Shown here one piece after another: positions 57,184 through 63,621 of a stretch of DNA of 64,000 nucleotides. Under the pieces are notes generated by a model that worked only from the letters and a program-made list of their open reading frames with translations, ran no database searches and was not told the origin of the DNA. The stretch is taken from contig BPGK01000001.1 in NCBI GenBank assembly GCA_026002995.1, positions 1,426,001 through 1,490,000 on the forward strand, read 5' to 3'. Position numbers and translations under genes: made by a program. The DNA comes from Gaiellaceae bacterium (GTDB lineage Bacteria > Actinomycetota > Thermoleophilia > Gaiellales > Gaiellaceae). How positions within the stretch are numbered: position 1 is the stretch's first letter; each line of letters opens with the position of its first letter.

Positions 57184-58716
57184 ATGCCCACCGCCGCTGC
57201 GGCGCTGATCGGAATTCTCGTCGGTTTCCTCGGGGCCTTCCTGGTGCTGACCGCCTTCTCCCGGTCGCGCGTGCGCGCAGCCGCGGACGAGCGGGCGCGC
57301 ATCCTCTCCGACGCCCAGCGCGAGGCCGACGCGATCCGACGGGAGGCGCACGTCGAGGCCCGGGAGCAGGCGCTCCAACTGCGGGCCGAAATCGAGGCCG
57401 ACGTGCGCGAGCGGCAACTCCAGGTCATGAAGATCGAGGAGCGCGTCCTCGCCCGTGAAGAGGAGATCCAGGCGAAGCTCGACGAGCTCGACCGCCGCGA
57501 GCAGGGGCTCGGCGATCGCGAGACCCACGTGCGAGCGCTCCAGGAGGAGCTCAAGGAAGCCCACCGCAAGGCCGTGGCAGCGCTCGAGCGCATCTCCGGC
57601 ATGACGGCACACGAGGCGCGCCAGCAGCTCATCGAGCGCTCGAGGGATCTCATCCGCCATGAGCTCGAGCGCGAGGCGCGACGGATGGAGGAGGAGGCGC
57701 GAGCCGACTCCCGCCGCCGCGCGCGCGCGCTCGTCGCCGACGCGCTCCAGCGGGTCGCCGCGAGCCACACCGCCGAGGTCACGGTGTCCGTCGTCGAGCT
57801 CGCCTCGGACGACCTCAAGGGCCGGATCATCGGGCGCGAGGGCCGGAACATCCGCGCCCTCGAGCACCTCACCGGGGTCGACTTCATCATCGACGACACA
57901 CCGCACGCGGTCGTGCTCTCCTCGTTCGACCCCTTGCGACGAGAGGTGGCTCGCCTGACGCTCGACAAGCTGATCGAGGACGGGCGGATCCATCCCGCTC
58001 GGATCGAGGAGATGTACTACCAGTCGAAGGCGGAGCTCGAGGATCACATCAAGCTCGCAGGCGAGCAGGCCGTCTACGAGGCGAACTGCGGCACGTTCCA
58101 CGAGGAGCTCGTGAAGATCCTCGGACGGCTGAAGTTCCGGACGAGCTACGGGCAGAACGTCCTCAAGCACACGCTCGAGGTCGTACACCTCGGGGGCATC
58201 ATGGCCGCCGAGCTCGAGGCCGGGGTGAAGACGACGAAGCGCGCTGCGCTCCTGCACGACATCGGGAAGGCCGTGAGCCACGAGGTCGAGGGCTCGCACG
58301 CGCTGATCTCCGCCCAGCTCGCGCGCCGGTACGGCGAGTCCGAGGGGGTCGTCCACGCCATCGAGGCGCACCACTACGAGGTGCAACCCCAGACCGTGGA
58401 GGCTGTGCTCGTGATCGCCGCCGACGCGATCTCGGCCTCGCGCCCGGGCGCGCGCGGAGAGAGCTTGGAGAACTACATCAAGCGGCTCGAGTCCCTCGAG
58501 GAGATCGCGACGAGCAAGCCGGGGGTCGCCAAGGCGTACGCGCTCCAGGCCGGCCGGGAGATCCGCGTCATCGTCGAGCCGAGCCAGGTGGACGACAACG
58601 GCGCCGTGCTGCTCTCGCACGAGATCGCCCGCGAGATCGAAGACCAGCTCGAGTACCCGGGCCAGGTGAAGGTCATCGTCATCCGCGAGTCGAGAGCGGT
58701 CGAGGTCGCGAAGTGA
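57184..58716 (+). CDS. rny: Ribonuclease Y
   Basis: A 510-residue membrane-anchored endoribonuclease. A single N-terminal helix (residues 4-22) is followed by a long coiled coil, the KH domain (LKGRIIGREGRNIRALEHLTGVDFIID) and the HD domain (HTLEVVHLGG and ALLHDIGKAVSHEVEGSHALI). It starts mRNA decay and pairs with RNase J. ATG 57184 has CGGAGG upstream. The 231-bp gap before it contains a TAGGTT hexamer at about 57097 and may hold a long leader. Confidence 0.95.
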   Translation: MPTAAAALIGILVGFLGAFLVLTAFSRSRVRAAADERARILSDAQREADAIRREAHVEAREQALQLRAEIEADVRERQLQVMKIEERVLAREEEIQAKLDELDRREQGLGDRETHVRALQEELKEAHRKAVAALERISGMTAHEARQQLIERSRDLIRHELEREARRMEEEARADSRRRARALVADALQRVAASHTAEVTVSVVELASDDLKGRIIGREGRNIRALEHLTGVDFIIDDTPHAVVLSSFDPLRREVARLTLDKLIEDGRIHPARIEEMYYQSKAELEDHIKLAGEQAVYEANCGTFHEELVKILGRLKFRTSYGQNVLKHTLEVVHLGGIMAAELEAGVKTTKRAALLHDIGKAVSHEVEGSHALISAQLARRYGESEGVVHAIEAHHYEVQPQTVEAVLVIAADAISASRPGARGESLENYIKRLESLEEIATSKPGVAKAYALQAGREIRVIVEPSQVDDNGAVLLSHEIAREIEDQLEYPGQVKVIVIRESRAVEVAK

Positions 58717-60038
58717 TGAAGCGCTACTACGTGACGACCTTCGGTTGCCAGATGAACGCGCACGACTCCGAGCGCATCAAAGGAATGCTCGAGTCGCTCG
58801 GGCTCGGCGAGGCGACGTCGCCCGAGAGTGCAGACGTGCTCGTCTACAACACGTGCACGATCCGGGAGAAGCCCGACACCCGGCTCGCGGCGTACCTGGG
58901 CAACGCAGCCGCTTGGAAGCGGGAGCGCCCCGATCTCGTCATCGCCGTCGGCGGCTGCTACGCGGAGGCGCAACGCGAGGCCCTCTTCGAGCGCTACCCG
59001 TTCGTGGACGTCGCCTTCGGACCCGGGTCGATCCCGCACCTCGCCGAGTGGATCGGCGCGGGGGGAGTGGGGGTCGCGAGGGGCCGCTTCGGCTCGCACG
59101 ACTCGTTCGCAGCCGAGCTCCCGGCGCGCCGAGAGCGACGGTTCCAGGCCTGGGTGCAGGTCTCGATGGGCTGCAACTCGGCGTGCGCGTACTGCATCGT
59201 GCCCGCCGTCCGCGGGCGCGAGCAGAGTCGGCGGCCGGGGGAGATCGTGGCCGAAGTGAGCGCGCTCGCCGCGCAGGGCGTCAAGGAGATTACCCTTCTC
59301 GGGCAGAACGTGAACTCGTGGGGGCGCGACCTCGCTCCGGCCGTGCGGACCGACTTCGGCGAGCTCCTGCGGGCCTGCGACGCGGTGGAGGGCATCGAGC
59401 GCATCCGCTTCACGAGCCCGCATCCGAAGGACTTCCGCGAGCCGGTCATCGCAGCGATCGCCGAGTGCGCCGCCGTCTGTGAGCACGTCCACCTCCCGCT
59501 CCAGTCGGGCTCGTCCCGCATCCTCAAACGCATGCGGCGCACCTACGACCGTGACCGCTACCTGGCGCTCGTCGAGCGACTGCGCGACGCCGTGCCCGAC
59601 CTCGCGCTCGGCACGGACATCATCGTCGGCTTCCCAGGCGAGAGCGACGAGGACTTCCTCGCCACTCTCGAGGTCGTCGAGCTCGTGCGCTTCGAGAGCG
59701 CATTTACGTTCATCTACTCGCCTCGTGCGGGGACCGAAGCGGCGGCGATGGCAGACCAGGTGCCCGAACACGTCAAGCACGAGCGGCTGGAAGCGCTCGT
59801 CGAGGTCGTACAGCGCATCGCGCGCGAGCGAAACGAGGAGCGAATCGGTCGCGTGGAGGAGGTGCTCGTCGAGGGCGTCAGTCGAACCGATCCCGGTCGG
59901 CTGCGCGGTCGCACCAGGCGGAACACCACCGTGAACTTCGTGGGCACAGCTCGCCCGGGAGATCTCGTCGATGTCGTCGTGGAGGCGGCGTCCTCTACGA
60001 CCCTGTCGGGTCGGGAGGCCGCGCTCGCCGTCGTGTGA
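58716..60038 (+). CDS. miaB: tRNA-2-methylthio-N6-dimethylallyladenosine synthase
   Basis: A 440-residue radical-SAM methylthiotransferase. The N-terminal domain has TFGCQMNAHDSE and NTCTIRE (cysteines for the first cluster). The radical-SAM CxxxCxxC is CNSACAYC. The C-terminal TRAM domain ends the protein. It adds the methylthio group to i6A37 in tRNA, after MiaA. ATG 58716 overlaps the rny stop by one base; a GTG 3 bp upstream is possible and would add one residue. Confidence 0.95.
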   Translation: MKRYYVTTFGCQMNAHDSERIKGMLESLGLGEATSPESADVLVYNTCTIREKPDTRLAAYLGNAAAWKRERPDLVIAVGGCYAEAQREALFERYPFVDVAFGPGSIPHLAEWIGAGGVGVARGRFGSHDSFAAELPARRERRFQAWVQVSMGCNSACAYCIVPAVRGREQSRRPGEIVAEVSALAAQGVKEITLLGQNVNSWGRDLAPAVRTDFGELLRACDAVEGIERIRFTSPHPKDFREPVIAAIAECAAVCEHVHLPLQSGSSRILKRMRRTYDRDRYLALVERLRDAVPDLALGTDIIVGFPGESDEDFLATLEVVELVRFESAFTFIYSPRAGTEAAAMADQVPEHVKHERLEALVEVVQRIARERNEERIGRVEEVLVEGVSRTDPGRLRGRTRRNTTVNFVGTARPGDLVDVVVEAASSTTLSGREAALAVV

Positions 60039-60108: not shown

Positions 60109-61020
60109 GTGGTGGGCCGGGGTGCCCCACGGGAGATGTCGCGAACCCCTGAGGTCGTCGCGCTCTTCGGCCCCACCGGCTCAGGGAAGACCGCGATCGC
60201 CGAGTCGGTCGCGGATGCCCTCGGCACCGAGGTCGTGTCCGCCGACGCGCTCCAGGTGTACCGCGGGCTTCCGATCCTTACGAACCAGCCTCACCGTCCG
60301 ACCCACCTCGTCGCGATTCGCGACCTCGCCGACGAGATGTCGGTCGGAGAGTACGCCGAGCTCGCCCACGCCGCGATCGATGCGCTCGTCGCGGCGACCG
60401 GACGCGCCGTGCTCGCCGGCGGCACGGGGCTCTACCTCCGTGCCGCGCTGTGCGACCTCCACGTCCCGCCCGCGGTCGACCGAGACCTGCGGGTCCGGCT
60501 GGAGCAGGAGTACGACACGGGGCCTCTTGCCATGTACGAGCGGTTGCGCGCGCTCGACCCCGTCGCGGCCTCCAGAGTGCACCCGAACGATCGACGGCGC
60601 GTTGTCCGCGCCCTCGAGCTCGCGACGGTCGGACGCTCGCTGGCTCCGGAACGCGATCGCCTGTGGTCGGCCGAGACTCGGCGGCCGACGCTCCTCGTCG
60701 GCCTCGAGCTCCCGCGCAGCCGCCTCGAGGAGCGCATCCGCAAGCGGACGCGAGCGATGTTCGAGCGGGGCGTCGAGGCCGAGGTGGCTCGCGCGCTCCG
60801 CAGCCGCATCTCCCGAACTGCAGCGAGTGCGCTCGGCCTCCGGGAGCTCGCGGAGCTTCCCGCCGAGGCCGCGTTCGAGGCCATCGTCACGCGGACCCTC
60901 CGCTACGCCTCGTACCAGCGGAAGTGGATGCGTCGTATTCCCGGCATCGTGCTCCTCGATGCCGATCGCCCGGCCGGGGAGGTGAGCCGTGAGATCGTCG
61001 ACCTGGCAGGCGCTCGGTAA
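60109..61020 (+). CDS. miaA: tRNA dimethylallyltransferase
   Basis: A 303-residue enzyme (294 if ATG 60136 is used). Walker-like GPTGSGKTAIAESVA is near the start, then SADALQVYRGLPILTNQP and HLVAI, and LAGGTGLYLRA, all diagnostic. It adds dimethylallyl to A37 of tRNAs reading U-initial codons, giving MiaB its substrate. Some relatives have a longer DxxQxYxG region. The last 32 bp overlap dapF. Confidence 0.93.
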   Translation: MVGRGAPREMSRTPEVVALFGPTGSGKTAIAESVADALGTEVVSADALQVYRGLPILTNQPHRPTHLVAIRDLADEMSVGEYAELAHAAIDALVAATGRAVLAGGTGLYLRAALCDLHVPPAVDRDLRVRLEQEYDTGPLAMYERLRALDPVAASRVHPNDRRRVVRALELATVGRSLAPERDRLWSAETRRPTLLVGLELPRSRLEERIRKRTRAMFERGVEAEVARALRSRISRTAASALGLRELAELPAEAAFEAIVTRTLRYASYQRKWMRRIPGIVLLDADRPAGEVSREIVDLAGAR

Positions 61021-61690
61021 CGTCTACGTGCTCGTCGAGCCGCGAGCATCGCGTCTGGATGCAGAGGCTGTCCGGTCGCTCGTCGGCGAGGCGGACGGCG
61101 TCCTGGAGGTGGTCGCGCACGACGACGAGGGCCTCGAGGTCGTGATCTGGAACCCGGACGGGTCGCGCGCGGAGCTCTCCGGCAACGGGACGCGGATCGC
61201 CGCGAGCTGGCACTTCGAGCAGACGGGGACGCAGAGCGTCCGTGTGCTCGTTGCCGGCCGCAGTGTCGCGGCGCGCCGCCTCGACGACGGGCTGGTCGAG
61301 CAGGAGCTCGGCCCCGTGCAGGTCGCCCCGCCCGAGGTGATCGGTCGCTGGACGGTCACTCCCGTCTCGGTCGGGAACCCGCACGCGGTCGTCCTCGGCG
61401 ACCCCGCTGAGATCGCCACCGTCGGTCCGGCGCTCGAGCGGCACGAGCGGTTTCCCGAGCGCACGAACGTCCAGGTCGCGCGTATCGACGGACCCGGCGT
61501 CGTGACCGCGCGCGTCTGGGAGCGCGGAGTGGGGGAGACCGCTTCGTCCGGGACGAGCGCGGTCGCCGTCGCCGCCGCCACCCACGGCGAGGGGGAGGTG
61601 CTCGTGCGTTTCCCCGGCGGCGACCTGCGCGTGCGCATCCACGGCGGACGGGCGTTCCTCATCGCTCCCCTGGCGACGAGAGTCGCGTGA
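60989..61690 (+). CDS. dapF: Diaminopimelate epimerase homologue with Ser in place of both catalytic Cys
   Basis: A 233-residue DapF-fold protein with the expected two-lobed signatures: NPDGSRAELSGNGTR (55-69), VGNPHAV (128-134), TNVQVARI and ERGVGETASSGTSA (178-191). In characterised DapF the first signature reads MCGNG and the second ACGTG; both active-site cysteines are here serine (S64 and S187). GTG 60989 overlaps miaA, the usual DapF neighbour. dapD and dapE converge from the other side. The fold assignment is strong; epimerase activity is uncertain. Confidence 0.85.
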   Translation: MRSSTWQALGNVYVLVEPRASRLDAEAVRSLVGEADGVLEVVAHDDEGLEVVIWNPDGSRAELSGNGTRIAASWHFEQTGTQSVRVLVAGRSVAARRLDDGLVEQELGPVQVAPPEVIGRWTVTPVSVGNPHAVVLGDPAEIATVGPALERHERFPERTNVQVARIDGPGVVTARVWERGVGETASSGTSAVAVAAATHGEGEVLVRFPGGDLRVRIHGGRAFLIAPLATRVA

Positions 61691-61726: not shown

Positions 61727-62524
61727 TCAGGTCGCGATCTCGAACTCGCGCAGGACGTCGTTGAGAGACGTCTTGAGGTCGGTCGACGCGCTCCGCTCGC
61801 CGACGATGAGGGCGCACGGGAGCTCGTACGTCCCGGCCGGGTAGGTCTTCGGCCGCGTTCCCGGGAGGACGACAGCTCGCGGCGGCACGACGCCGCGGTG
61901 CTCCACGGGTGTGCTCCCCGTGACGTCGATGATGGGCACGGACGCGGAGAGGACGACGTTGGGCGCGATGACCGCGCCCTCGCCGACGAGAACGCCTTCG
62001 ACGATCACCGCGCGGGAGCCGATGAACGCCCCGTCCTCGACGATCACCGGCCGCGCCTGCGGCGGCTCGAGCACGCCGCCGATCCCCACACCCCCGGACA
62101 GGTGCACGTCGGCGCCGATCTGGGCGCACGACCCGACCGTCGCCCAGGTATCGACCATCGTGCGTGGGCCGACCCAGGCGCCGATGTTCACGTACCCGGG
62201 CATGAGCACCACGCCCTCCGAGAGGAAGGAGCCGTACCGCGCGACACCCGGAGGAACGACGCGAACGCCGCGCGCCGCGTAGTCGGTCTTGACCGGGATC
62301 TTGTCGAGGAAGTGCAGCCCGCCCACCTCCATGGGCTCGACCTTGCGGAGCCGGAAGTAGAGGAGGATCGCCATCTTCACCCACTCGTTCACCTGCCACT
62401 CGCCGTCACGCCGCTCGGCGACGCGGAGCTCGCCCGCATCGAGGAGGCGCACGGCCTCCTCGATCGGGGCAGGGTCGAGGATCCCGGTCTCCCACGAGCG
62501 CTCGATCGCGGCCCGAAGCTCCAT
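61727..62524 (-). CDS. dapD: Tetrahydrodipicolinate N-succinyltransferase
   Basis: A 265-residue left-handed beta-helix enzyme. The repeats VGPRTMVDTWATVGSCAQIGADVHLSGGVGIGGVLEPPQA and the loop MVDTWATVGS are typical of DapD. It succinylates tetrahydrodipicolinate, so this organism uses the succinylase branch. ATG 62524 overlaps the dapE stop (TGATG), forming a dapE-dapD operon. The gene converges with dapF, 36 bp apart. Confidence 0.93.
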   Translation of the reverse strand: MELRAAIERSWETGILDPAPIEEAVRLLDAGELRVAERRDGEWQVNEWVKMAILLYFRLRKVEPMEVGGLHFLDKIPVKTDYAARGVRVVPPGVARYGSFLSEGVVLMPGYVNIGAWVGPRTMVDTWATVGSCAQIGADVHLSGGVGIGGVLEPPQARPVIVEDGAFIGSRAVIVEGVLVGEGAVIAPNVVLSASVPIIDVTGSTPVEHRGVVPPRAVVLPGTRPKTYPAGTYELPCALIVGERSASTDLKTSLNDVLREFEIAT

Positions 62525-63621
62525 CAGCCTCCATCCTCGCCGATCGGGGCGGACGCCGTCACGAGCTCTCGCAACACCTCGTAGCAGCGGACGAGCGCGG
62601 CGACCTCGACCTGCTCGTCGCGACGGTGTGCGAACGCGGGGTCTCCGGGCCCGAAGTTGACCGCGTCGATCCCGTGCGCCGTGAAGTCGGCGACGTTCGT
62701 CCACGCCTGCTTCGGCTCGACCTCGGCGAGGCCGGCCGCGGCCCGTAGAGCCAGGACGAGGGGGGAGGCGACGGTCACCCGTCCCGCCGGCGCGTGGCTT
62801 GCCACCTCGACCTCCACACCGTCCGGGAGGAGCGCCCGGAGCGCCGCTTCGGCCTCCGTCGGGGAGCGATTCGGCGCGTACCGGAAGTTCACGGTCGCGC
62901 TCGCCTCCCCCGGGATGACGTTGTCTGCGATTCCCGCCTGCAGGCGAGTGACGGCGAGCACCTCCACGAAGGTCAGGCCCTCGACGACCACCTCTCGCGA
63001 GGGGTGCGCGAGGAGCGGCCGGATCCCCTCGACCGCACGGGCGAGCGCGCTGTCTGCGAGCCACGGCCGTGCGGAGTGGCCGCTCCTGCCGTGGAAGACG
63101 AGACGGGCGATGAGGTTGCCGAGGCACCCTGCCTGGATGCGGCCGGCGGTGGGCTCGAGCACGATCGCGAGCGCGGTCTCGTGGATCGCCCGGGAGCGCG
63201 CGAAGAGCTCGGGAAGCGGATCGTGCTCGTACGGGAGCTCTTCCTTGCCGAAGAGAAGCAGCGCGACGTCGGCTCGCCCGTGGGGCACCTCCGCGAGGTC
63301 GCGGACGAGCTCGAGCGCGACGGCGAGTCCGCCCTTCATGTCGCTCGCGCCGAGCCCGTGCACACGCCCGTCGGCGATGCGTCCGGGGAGGTTGCCCTGC
63401 GCCGGCACCGTGTCGTAGTGCCCGACGAGCGTCACGAGGGGGGCGTCGGTTCGCCTCGCCGGGACGAAGAAGGCCGCGTCGTCCGAGCGGTACTCGAGGG
63501 CGAGCGAGGGCGGGACGAGCTCGAGGAGCCGTTCGCGAATCCGGGCTTCGTCGCCGCTCTCGGAGGGGATGTCGACGAGCTCGAGCGTTCGCGCGGCAAG
63601 ACGGTCGGCGAGCGCACGCAC
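62524..63621 (-). CDS. dapE: Succinyl-diaminopimelate desuccinylase
   Basis: A 365-residue M20-type metallohydrolase. H68 (GHYDTVPAQGN), D94 (ASDMKGG), E in GKEELPYEHDPL, E in LEPTAG and H in AFAHRRDE are the zinc-site residues. It releases LL-diaminopimelate from its succinyl form, made by DapD. GTG 63621 has a -10 hexamer 6 bases upstream. It heads the dapE-dapD operon, divergent from hflX. Confidence 0.92.
   Translation of the reverse strand: MRALADRLAARTLELVDIPSESGDEARIRERLLELVPPSLALEYRSDDAAFFVPARRTDAPLVTLVGHYDTVPAQGNLPGRIADGRVHGLGASDMKGGLAVALELVRDLAEVPHGRADVALLLFGKEELPYEHDPLPELFARSRAIHETALAIVLEPTAGRIQAGCLGNLIARLVFHGRSGHSARPWLADSALARAVEGIRPLLAHPSREVVVEGLTFVEVLAVTRLQAGIADNVIPGEASATVNFRYAPNRSPTEAEAALRALLPDGVEVEVASHAPAGRVTVASPLVLALRAAAGLAEVEPKQAWTNVADFTAHGIDAVNFGPGDPAFAHRRDEQVEVAALVRCYEVLRELVTASAPIGEDGG

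What the first reader, a model, noticed from the sequence alone, without database searches (positions are those of the whole stretch)
60989..61690. DapF homologue with both catalytic cysteines replaced by serine
Known diaminopimelate epimerases use two cysteines in MCGNG and ACGTG. Here these read LSGNG (S64) and SSGTS (S187). Everything around them (NPDGS, VGNPH, TNVQ, ERGxGET) is kept, and the gene lies in its usual place after miaA with dapD and dapE next to it. Matched replacement at both sites argues for a constrained change, not decay. Either a Ser/Ser epimerase works by altered chemistry, or the cell uses LL-diaminopimelate in its wall, or the protein has another role.
Basis: partly seen in the sequence, partly recalled or inferred. 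Interest (0 to 1): 0.65.

Follow-up and report, generated by a model that had tools for sequence, protein, structure and literature searches.

The report
Cysteine-free Ser/Ser diaminopimelate epimerase variant
A wall- and lysine-making enzyme that in every studied case works with two cysteines has, in a large group of soil actinobacteria and a few other phyla, swapped both for serine, yet is still the only such enzyme in cells whose walls contain its product.

Summary
The window's DapF (60989-61690, +) has Ser64 and Ser187 (both TCC) where DAP epimerases have cysteines. It is intact, passes the DapF equivalog cut-off, keeps all eight DAP-contacting residues, and is the only DapF in a one-contig genome.

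It is not an oddity of this genome. Serine is fixed in every genome checked of six families in this class; six other families are Cys/Cys. Of 178 distinct DapFs read, 93 are Ser/Ser, 83 Cys/Cys and 2 mixed. Ser/Ser also occurs in Nitrospirota, Acidobacteriota, 'Deltaproteobacteria' and Chloroflexota MAGs; one Ser/Ser clade is rejected (AU p = 0.008). The second serine has switched between TCN and AGY codons about nine times with no reversion to Cys seen.

The window genome has LysA, a DNPR-type MurE, no second DapF and no diaminopimelate dehydrogenase over cut-off. A genome whose length equals the Conexibacter woesei chromosome has one DapF, Ser/Ser; that species' published wall is meso-DAP. 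The likeliest reading is a working LL-to-meso-DAP epimerase with serines as acid/base pair; LL-DAP walls are disfavoured. No enzyme was assayed, so activity and chemistry remain inferred. I found no published description.

The parts
60989..61690 (+). dapF homologue, Ser/Ser type, 233 aa, GTG start
   Evidence: TIGR00652 117.5 bits against cut-off 114.65; PF01678 101.6 bits
61178..61180 (+). codon 64, TCC (Ser) in LSGNG, at the first catalytic Cys position (Cys73 of H. influenzae, Cys83 of C. glutamicum)
   Evidence: alignment to solved DapFs
61547..61549 (+). codon 187, TCC (Ser) in SSGTS, at the second catalytic Cys position (Cys217 of H. influenzae, Cys221 of C. glutamicum)
61382..61384 (+). 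codon 132, His of VGNPH; kept here, but Gln in the Solirubrobacterales-type and Asn in the Acidobacteria Ser/Ser enzymes
61520..61525 (+). codons 178-179, Glu-Arg of ERGVGET; bind the distal end of DAP in solved DapFs
60133..61020 (+). miaA, just upstream and overlapping dapF by 32 bases (start codon uncertain)
   Evidence: TIGR00174 over cut-off
61727..62524 (-). dapD, tetrahydrodipicolinate N-succinyltransferase
   Evidence: NF008808 327.7 bits, cut-off 204
62524..63621 (-). dapE, succinyl-DAP desuccinylase, whose product is LL-DAP, the DapF substrate
   Evidence: TIGR01900 332.6 bits, cut-off 304.2
58713..60038 (+). miaB, upstream neighbour
   Evidence: TIGR01574 over cut-off

Best explanation
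The gene encodes a working LL-/meso-diaminopimelate epimerase of the DapF fold in which the usual thiol/thiolate pair is replaced by two serines. DAP is held as in ordinary DapF, with the distal L-centre bound by Asn55, Asn130, Asn160, Glu178 and Arg179 and the reacting carboxylate held at the N-termini of two helices. Ser64 and Ser187 face the reacting alpha-carbon from opposite sides, one removing the proton and the other giving one back. It supplies meso-DAP for LysA and for the wall. Shown: sequence, fold prediction, conservation, absence of known alternatives over cut-off. Inferred: epimerase activity and the two-serine acid/base chemistry.
For: Passes the DapF equivalog and Pfam cut-offs; 28 of 28 aligned Ser/Ser members match TIGR00652. 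AlphaFold2 model pLDDT 96.5; best solved match is a ligand-bound DapF, 9mro, Z 31.1, rmsd 2.0 over 232 residues. The eight substrate-binding residues mutated in C. glutamicum DapF correspond to N11, N55, N66, N130, N160, E178, R179, T189; all but T189 are near-invariant in Ser/Ser groups, and T189 is Thr or Ser. One DapF protein per genome in 49 genomes checked (47 of them Ser/Ser, 2 mixed). LysA in G000 and 33 other relatives over cut-off; no Ddh over cut-off in 41 relatives or 47 further genomes. MurE of G000 has the DNPR motif. A contig of 6,359,369 bp equals the published C. woesei chromosome length; its only DapF is Ser/Ser, and C. woesei peptidoglycan is A1gamma with meso-A2pm, diagnostic for the whole order Solirubrobacterales. 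Serine kept through about nine TCN/AGY box switches; purifying selection. Precedent in the sister superfamily: a Ser-Cys 4-hydroxyproline epimerase.
Against: No Ser/Ser DapF has been assayed. Cys-to-Ser mutants of histidine racemase are strongly slowed, and Cys-to-Ser is used to disable DapF for crystallography. The His of GNPH is replaced by Gln in the C. woesei-type enzymes, so the best physiological evidence comes from a subtype that differs from the window enzyme. An unknown non-homologous epimerase cannot be excluded. The wall isomer of the window's own family was not found in the literature searched.
Confidence: 0.75

Rival explanations
1. The protein is no longer a DAP epimerase. It binds DAP or a related amino acid in another role, and meso-DAP comes from an unrecognised enzyme.
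For: The cysteines are lost, and Cys-to-Ser or Cys-to-Ala mutants of relatives are slow or nearly dead. The Solirubrobacterales-type enzymes also lose the His of GNPH. DapF-like proteins with other substrates exist, such as histidine racemase. Two Nitrospira genomes carry a Ddh-like protein under the cut-off.
Against: Every DAP-contact position is kept. In G000 only one PF01168 protein and one glutamate racemase are found, and both have expected essential roles of their own. No Ddh over cut-off. The replacement would have to hold in at least two separate Ser/Ser groups, each without a second DapF.
Confidence: 0.14
2. These bacteria use LL-DAP in the wall, so meso-DAP is not needed and the epimerase has been relaxed or repurposed.
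For: DapD and DapE make LL-DAP next to dapF; the wall isomer of the window's own family is not known to me.
Against: Meso-DAP is the wall amino acid of C. woesei and diagnostic of Solirubrobacterales, and is found in Solirubrobacter; Solirubrobacterales MAGs and the genome matching C. woesei carry Ser/Ser DapF. LysA, which decarboxylates meso-DAP (established knowledge), is present in G000. dN/dS shows constraint, not relaxation.
Confidence: 0.05
3. The serines are not the working groups: they are converted after translation, or recoded to cysteine, so the mature enzyme is of the ordinary kind.
For: It would explain full function with serine codons.
Against: Both serine codon boxes are used at the sites, which argues against recoding of one codon. 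Glutamate racemase in the same genomes keeps ordinary cysteines. No such system is known to me.
Confidence: 0.02
4. Pseudogene, assembly error or sequencing error.
For: None found.
Against: Intact ORF, conserved place, 93 distinct Ser/Ser sequences from many assemblies, and dN/dS well below 1.
Confidence: 0.01

Closest known systems
Diaminopimelate epimerase DapF (TIGR00652, PF01678; solved examples 9MRO, 5M47, 2GKE, 1GQZ)
   Same: Same fold, gene neighbourhood and pathway, same DAP-contact residues; scores over the curated cut-offs.
   Different: Both catalytic cysteines are serine; part of the Ser/Ser enzymes (not this one) also have GNPQ or GNPN for GNPH. In the window's subgroup several loops are shortened (233 aa).
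Ser-Cys 4-hydroxyproline 2-epimerase and Ser-Thr trans-3-hydroxyproline dehydratase of the proline racemase superfamily (Zhao et al. 2014, PMC4113996)
   Same: Same overall fold class; serine stands naturally at one catalytic Cys position in an enzyme with shown epimerase activity.
   Different: Different family and substrates; only one serine in the epimerase, and the Ser-Thr pair is a dehydratase, not an epimerase.
Engineered Cys-to-Ser mutants of DapF (2Q9H, 2Q9J) and histidine racemase (9CR1, 9CR6)
   Same: Serine at one of the same two positions.
   Different: Man-made single mutants, slowed or used as disabled forms; here both positions are natural serine and under selection.

Membership tests
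DapF, by sequence family | Score over the curated cut-offs of TIGR00652 (equivalog) and PF01678 | tested here: met
   117.5 against 114.65 bits; 101.6 against 34.7 bits
DapF, by sequence family | Two-domain DapF fold | tested here: met
   Predicted model pLDDT 96.5; Z 31.1, rmsd 2.0 to 9mro
DapF, by sequence family | Residues that bind DAP (C. glutamicum N15, N74, N85, N159, N194, E212, R213, T223) | tested here: met
   N11, N55, N66, N130, N160, E178, R179, T189 in the window protein
Two-cysteine (thiol/thiolate) DAP epimerase | Catalytic Cys in CGNG and CGTG | tested here: not met
   Ser64 and Ser187, both TCC. So it is filed as a Ser/Ser variant of the DapF family, not as an ordinary two-cysteine epimerase
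DapF, by function | Interconverts LL-DAP and meso-DAP | not testable with these tools
   No assay possible; inferred from pathway content and from the meso-DAP wall of C. woesei
DapF, by pathway | Sole DapF, no Ddh over cut-off, LysA present in the same genome | tested here: met

The most novel reading that the evidence does not exclude
DapF has repeatedly, and under selection, replaced both catalytic cysteines by serine and works by a different acid/base chemistry (serine hydroxyl/alkoxide with help from the substrate or a conserved Glu), giving a thiol-free, oxidation-insensitive amino-acid epimerase.
Probability: 0.4. Interest if true: 0.75.

Novelty: new variant of a known kind. Interest (0 to 1): 0.62.

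Why it matters
Cofactor-independent amino-acid racemases are textbook two-cysteine enzymes, and how a thiolate removes a proton of pKa about 29 is a standing question. A large natural family that does the same job with two serines would give an evolved comparison in place of crippled mutants. It would also be insensitive to the active-site disulfide that switches off C. glutamicum DapF, and would probably escape thiol-directed DapF inhibitors such as aziDAP. Annotation pipelines already call these proteins DapF without noting the missing cysteines.

Tried and rejected
Second Cys/Cys DapF: none in G000 or in 49 checked genomes. Diaminopimelate dehydrogenase as bypass: none over cut-off; two Nitrospira genomes have a weak full-length relative. 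Extra Alr-type racemase in G000: only one PF01168 protein. General avoidance of cysteine in racemases: rejected, because glutamate racemase keeps both cysteines in G000 and in nearly all checked genomes. Single origin of all Ser/Ser: rejected (p-AU 0.0076); a single origin within the class is not rejected (p-AU 0.40), and two further AU tests did not finish. Codon recoding: disfavoured by use of both serine codon boxes. MurE motif as a test of LL versus meso: DNPR found, but to my knowledge it does not tell the two isomers apart. Literature searches found no description of Ser/Ser DapF, but only open-licence papers are held, so this is weak evidence of novelty.

Full report
OBSERVATION. The ORF at 60989-61690 (+) begins with GTG and encodes 233 aa. 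Codons 64 and 187 are both TCC (Ser), where DapF has its two catalytic cysteines; the alignments to solved DapFs show both positions. The protein passes the NCBIfam DapF equivalog cut-off narrowly (117.5 against 114.65 bits) and Pfam PF01678 well (101.6 against 34.7 bits). Neighbours are miaB, miaA, dapD and dapE. The genome is one contig of 2,622,036 bases at 97% completeness and holds no other DapF.

HOW FAR IT SPREADS. All 21 DapFs of the window's own family f1 that were first aligned are Ser/Ser, as are the five of family f2 in the same order; families f3 and f4 of that order are Cys/Cys. Across 399 genomes of the class, the second site is a TCN serine in 221. The family f10 genomes without TCN that were checked carry AGC or AGT serine instead; about 18 such genomes were not checked. 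In sum, families f1, f2, f8, f10, f11 and f12 are Ser in all genomes checked, and f3, f4, f5, f6, f7 and f9 are Cys. Family f1 includes 'Candidatus Gaiellasilicea maunaloa' (its contig of 83,702 bp appears in both collections), so the window most likely belongs to Gaiellaceae. Outside the class, Ser/Ser DapFs appear in Nitrospira and other Nitrospirota, two 'Deltaproteobacteria', a Chloroflexi and two Acidobacteria MAGs.

THE TWO SITES CHANGE TOGETHER. Among 178 distinct sequences with both sites read, 93 are Ser/Ser, 83 Cys/Cys and 2 mixed. The mixed ones are single MAGs: L159 (Ser/Cys) and L170 (Cys/Ser).

IT IS UNDER SELECTION. dN/dS for ten close Ser/Ser pairs is 0.12-0.42; synonymous distances near 1 make some of these rough. 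At the second site 71 of 93 use TCN and 22 AGY. On the tree this needs at least nine box switches. A switch takes two substitutions with Cys or Thr as the one-step intermediates. Ser codons of both boxes lie one step from Cys, yet no Ser/Ser clade shows a return to Cys at both sites. Glutamate racemase, another two-cysteine racemase, keeps its cysteines in the window genome and in nearly all others checked, so the change is particular to DapF.

ORIGINS. With the three trait columns removed, a single Ser/Ser clade is rejected (p-AU 0.0076), so at least two origins, or one origin with reversals, are needed; starred branches force at least three changes. A single Ser/Ser clade within the class is not rejected (p-AU 0.40).

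THE ACTIVE SITE OTHERWISE. The residues whose alanine mutants were tested in C. glutamicum DapF (N15, N74, N85, N159, N194, E212, R213, T223; PMC5296763) correspond to N11, N55, N66, N130, N160, E178, R179 and T189 here. All are kept in the window protein, and they are essentially invariant in Ser/Ser and Cys/Cys groups alike, with Ser for Thr at 189 in some. The predicted structure is confident (pLDDT 96.5) and is closest to ligand-bound, closed DapF 9mro (Z 31.1). His132 of GNPH is kept in the window's group, f2 and the Nitrospira group, but is Gln in all 46 Solirubrobacterales-type enzymes and Asn in the two Acidobacteria ones. This His therefore cannot be a general requirement of the Ser/Ser enzymes.

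DOES IT STILL EPIMERISE DAP? The evidence is indirect. DapD and DapE lead to LL-DAP. LysA, which needs meso-DAP (established knowledge), is in the window genome and in most relatives. No diaminopimelate dehydrogenase passes the cut-off. Each of 49 genomes (47 Ser/Ser, 2 mixed) has exactly one DapF protein. The strongest link is Conexibacter woesei. Genome G217 has a contig of 6,359,369 bp, equal to the published chromosome (PMC3035278). Its single DapF is Ser/Ser. The same paper states that C. woesei peptidoglycan is A1gamma with meso-A2pm and that meso-DAP is diagnostic for all Solirubrobacterales. Solirubrobacter likewise has meso-DAP in whole-cell hydrolysates (PMC10722151).

MECHANISM. In ordinary DapF one cysteine thiolate removes the alpha proton and the other thiol gives one back; both sit at helix N-termini (PMC12039745). 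I infer that Ser64 and Ser187 take these two places. How a serine is made basic enough is not shown. Candidates are the helix dipoles and backbone amides, the zwitterionic substrate, and the invariant Glu178 or Glu183. A natural Ser-Cys 4-hydroxyproline epimerase in the related proline racemase superfamily (PMC4113996) shows that one serine is compatible with epimerisation. Single Cys-to-Ser mutants of histidine racemase are strongly slowed, so a simple swap in a cysteine enzyme is not enough, and the Ser/Ser enzymes must either be adapted or tolerate low turnover.

WHY IT MIGHT HAVE HAPPENED. C. glutamicum DapF is reversibly switched off by a disulfide between its two cysteines. A serine enzyme could not form it. 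This is speculation; retained cysteines in glutamate racemase argue against a general retreat from cysteine.

VERDICT. A real, widespread, selected Ser/Ser variant of DapF; most likely a working DAP epimerase; chemistry open. I found no prior description in the open-licence papers searched.

Noticed in passing
L261 (G082, family f10): Glutamate racemase reads GSTHYP instead of GCTHYP at its second catalytic cysteine; all other glutamate racemases read here keep Cys.
   Followed up: no
L167 and L225 (Acidobacteria MAGs): Ser/Ser DapF with GNPN instead of GNPH and a Cys three residues after the second serine (SGTCS).
   Followed up: partly
L159 (Chloroflexi MAG) and L170 (Acidimicrobiia MAG): The only two mixed DapFs: Ser/Cys and Cys/Ser, possible intermediates.
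   Followed up: no
L244:1492-2364 (-), Nitrospira genome G403; also G404: A full-length relative of diaminopimelate dehydrogenase below the cut-off (112.6 against 180.6 bits) in genomes with Ser/Ser DapF.
   Followed up: partly
L141 and L142 (G285, family f1): Two separate Ser-type DapF pattern matches on two contigs of one 78%-complete genome: a paralogue or contamination.
   Followed up: no
L085-L125 (Solirubrobacterales-type DapFs): The otherwise universal His of GNPH is Gln in all 46 Solirubrobacterales-type Ser/Ser DapFs aligned.
   Followed up: yes
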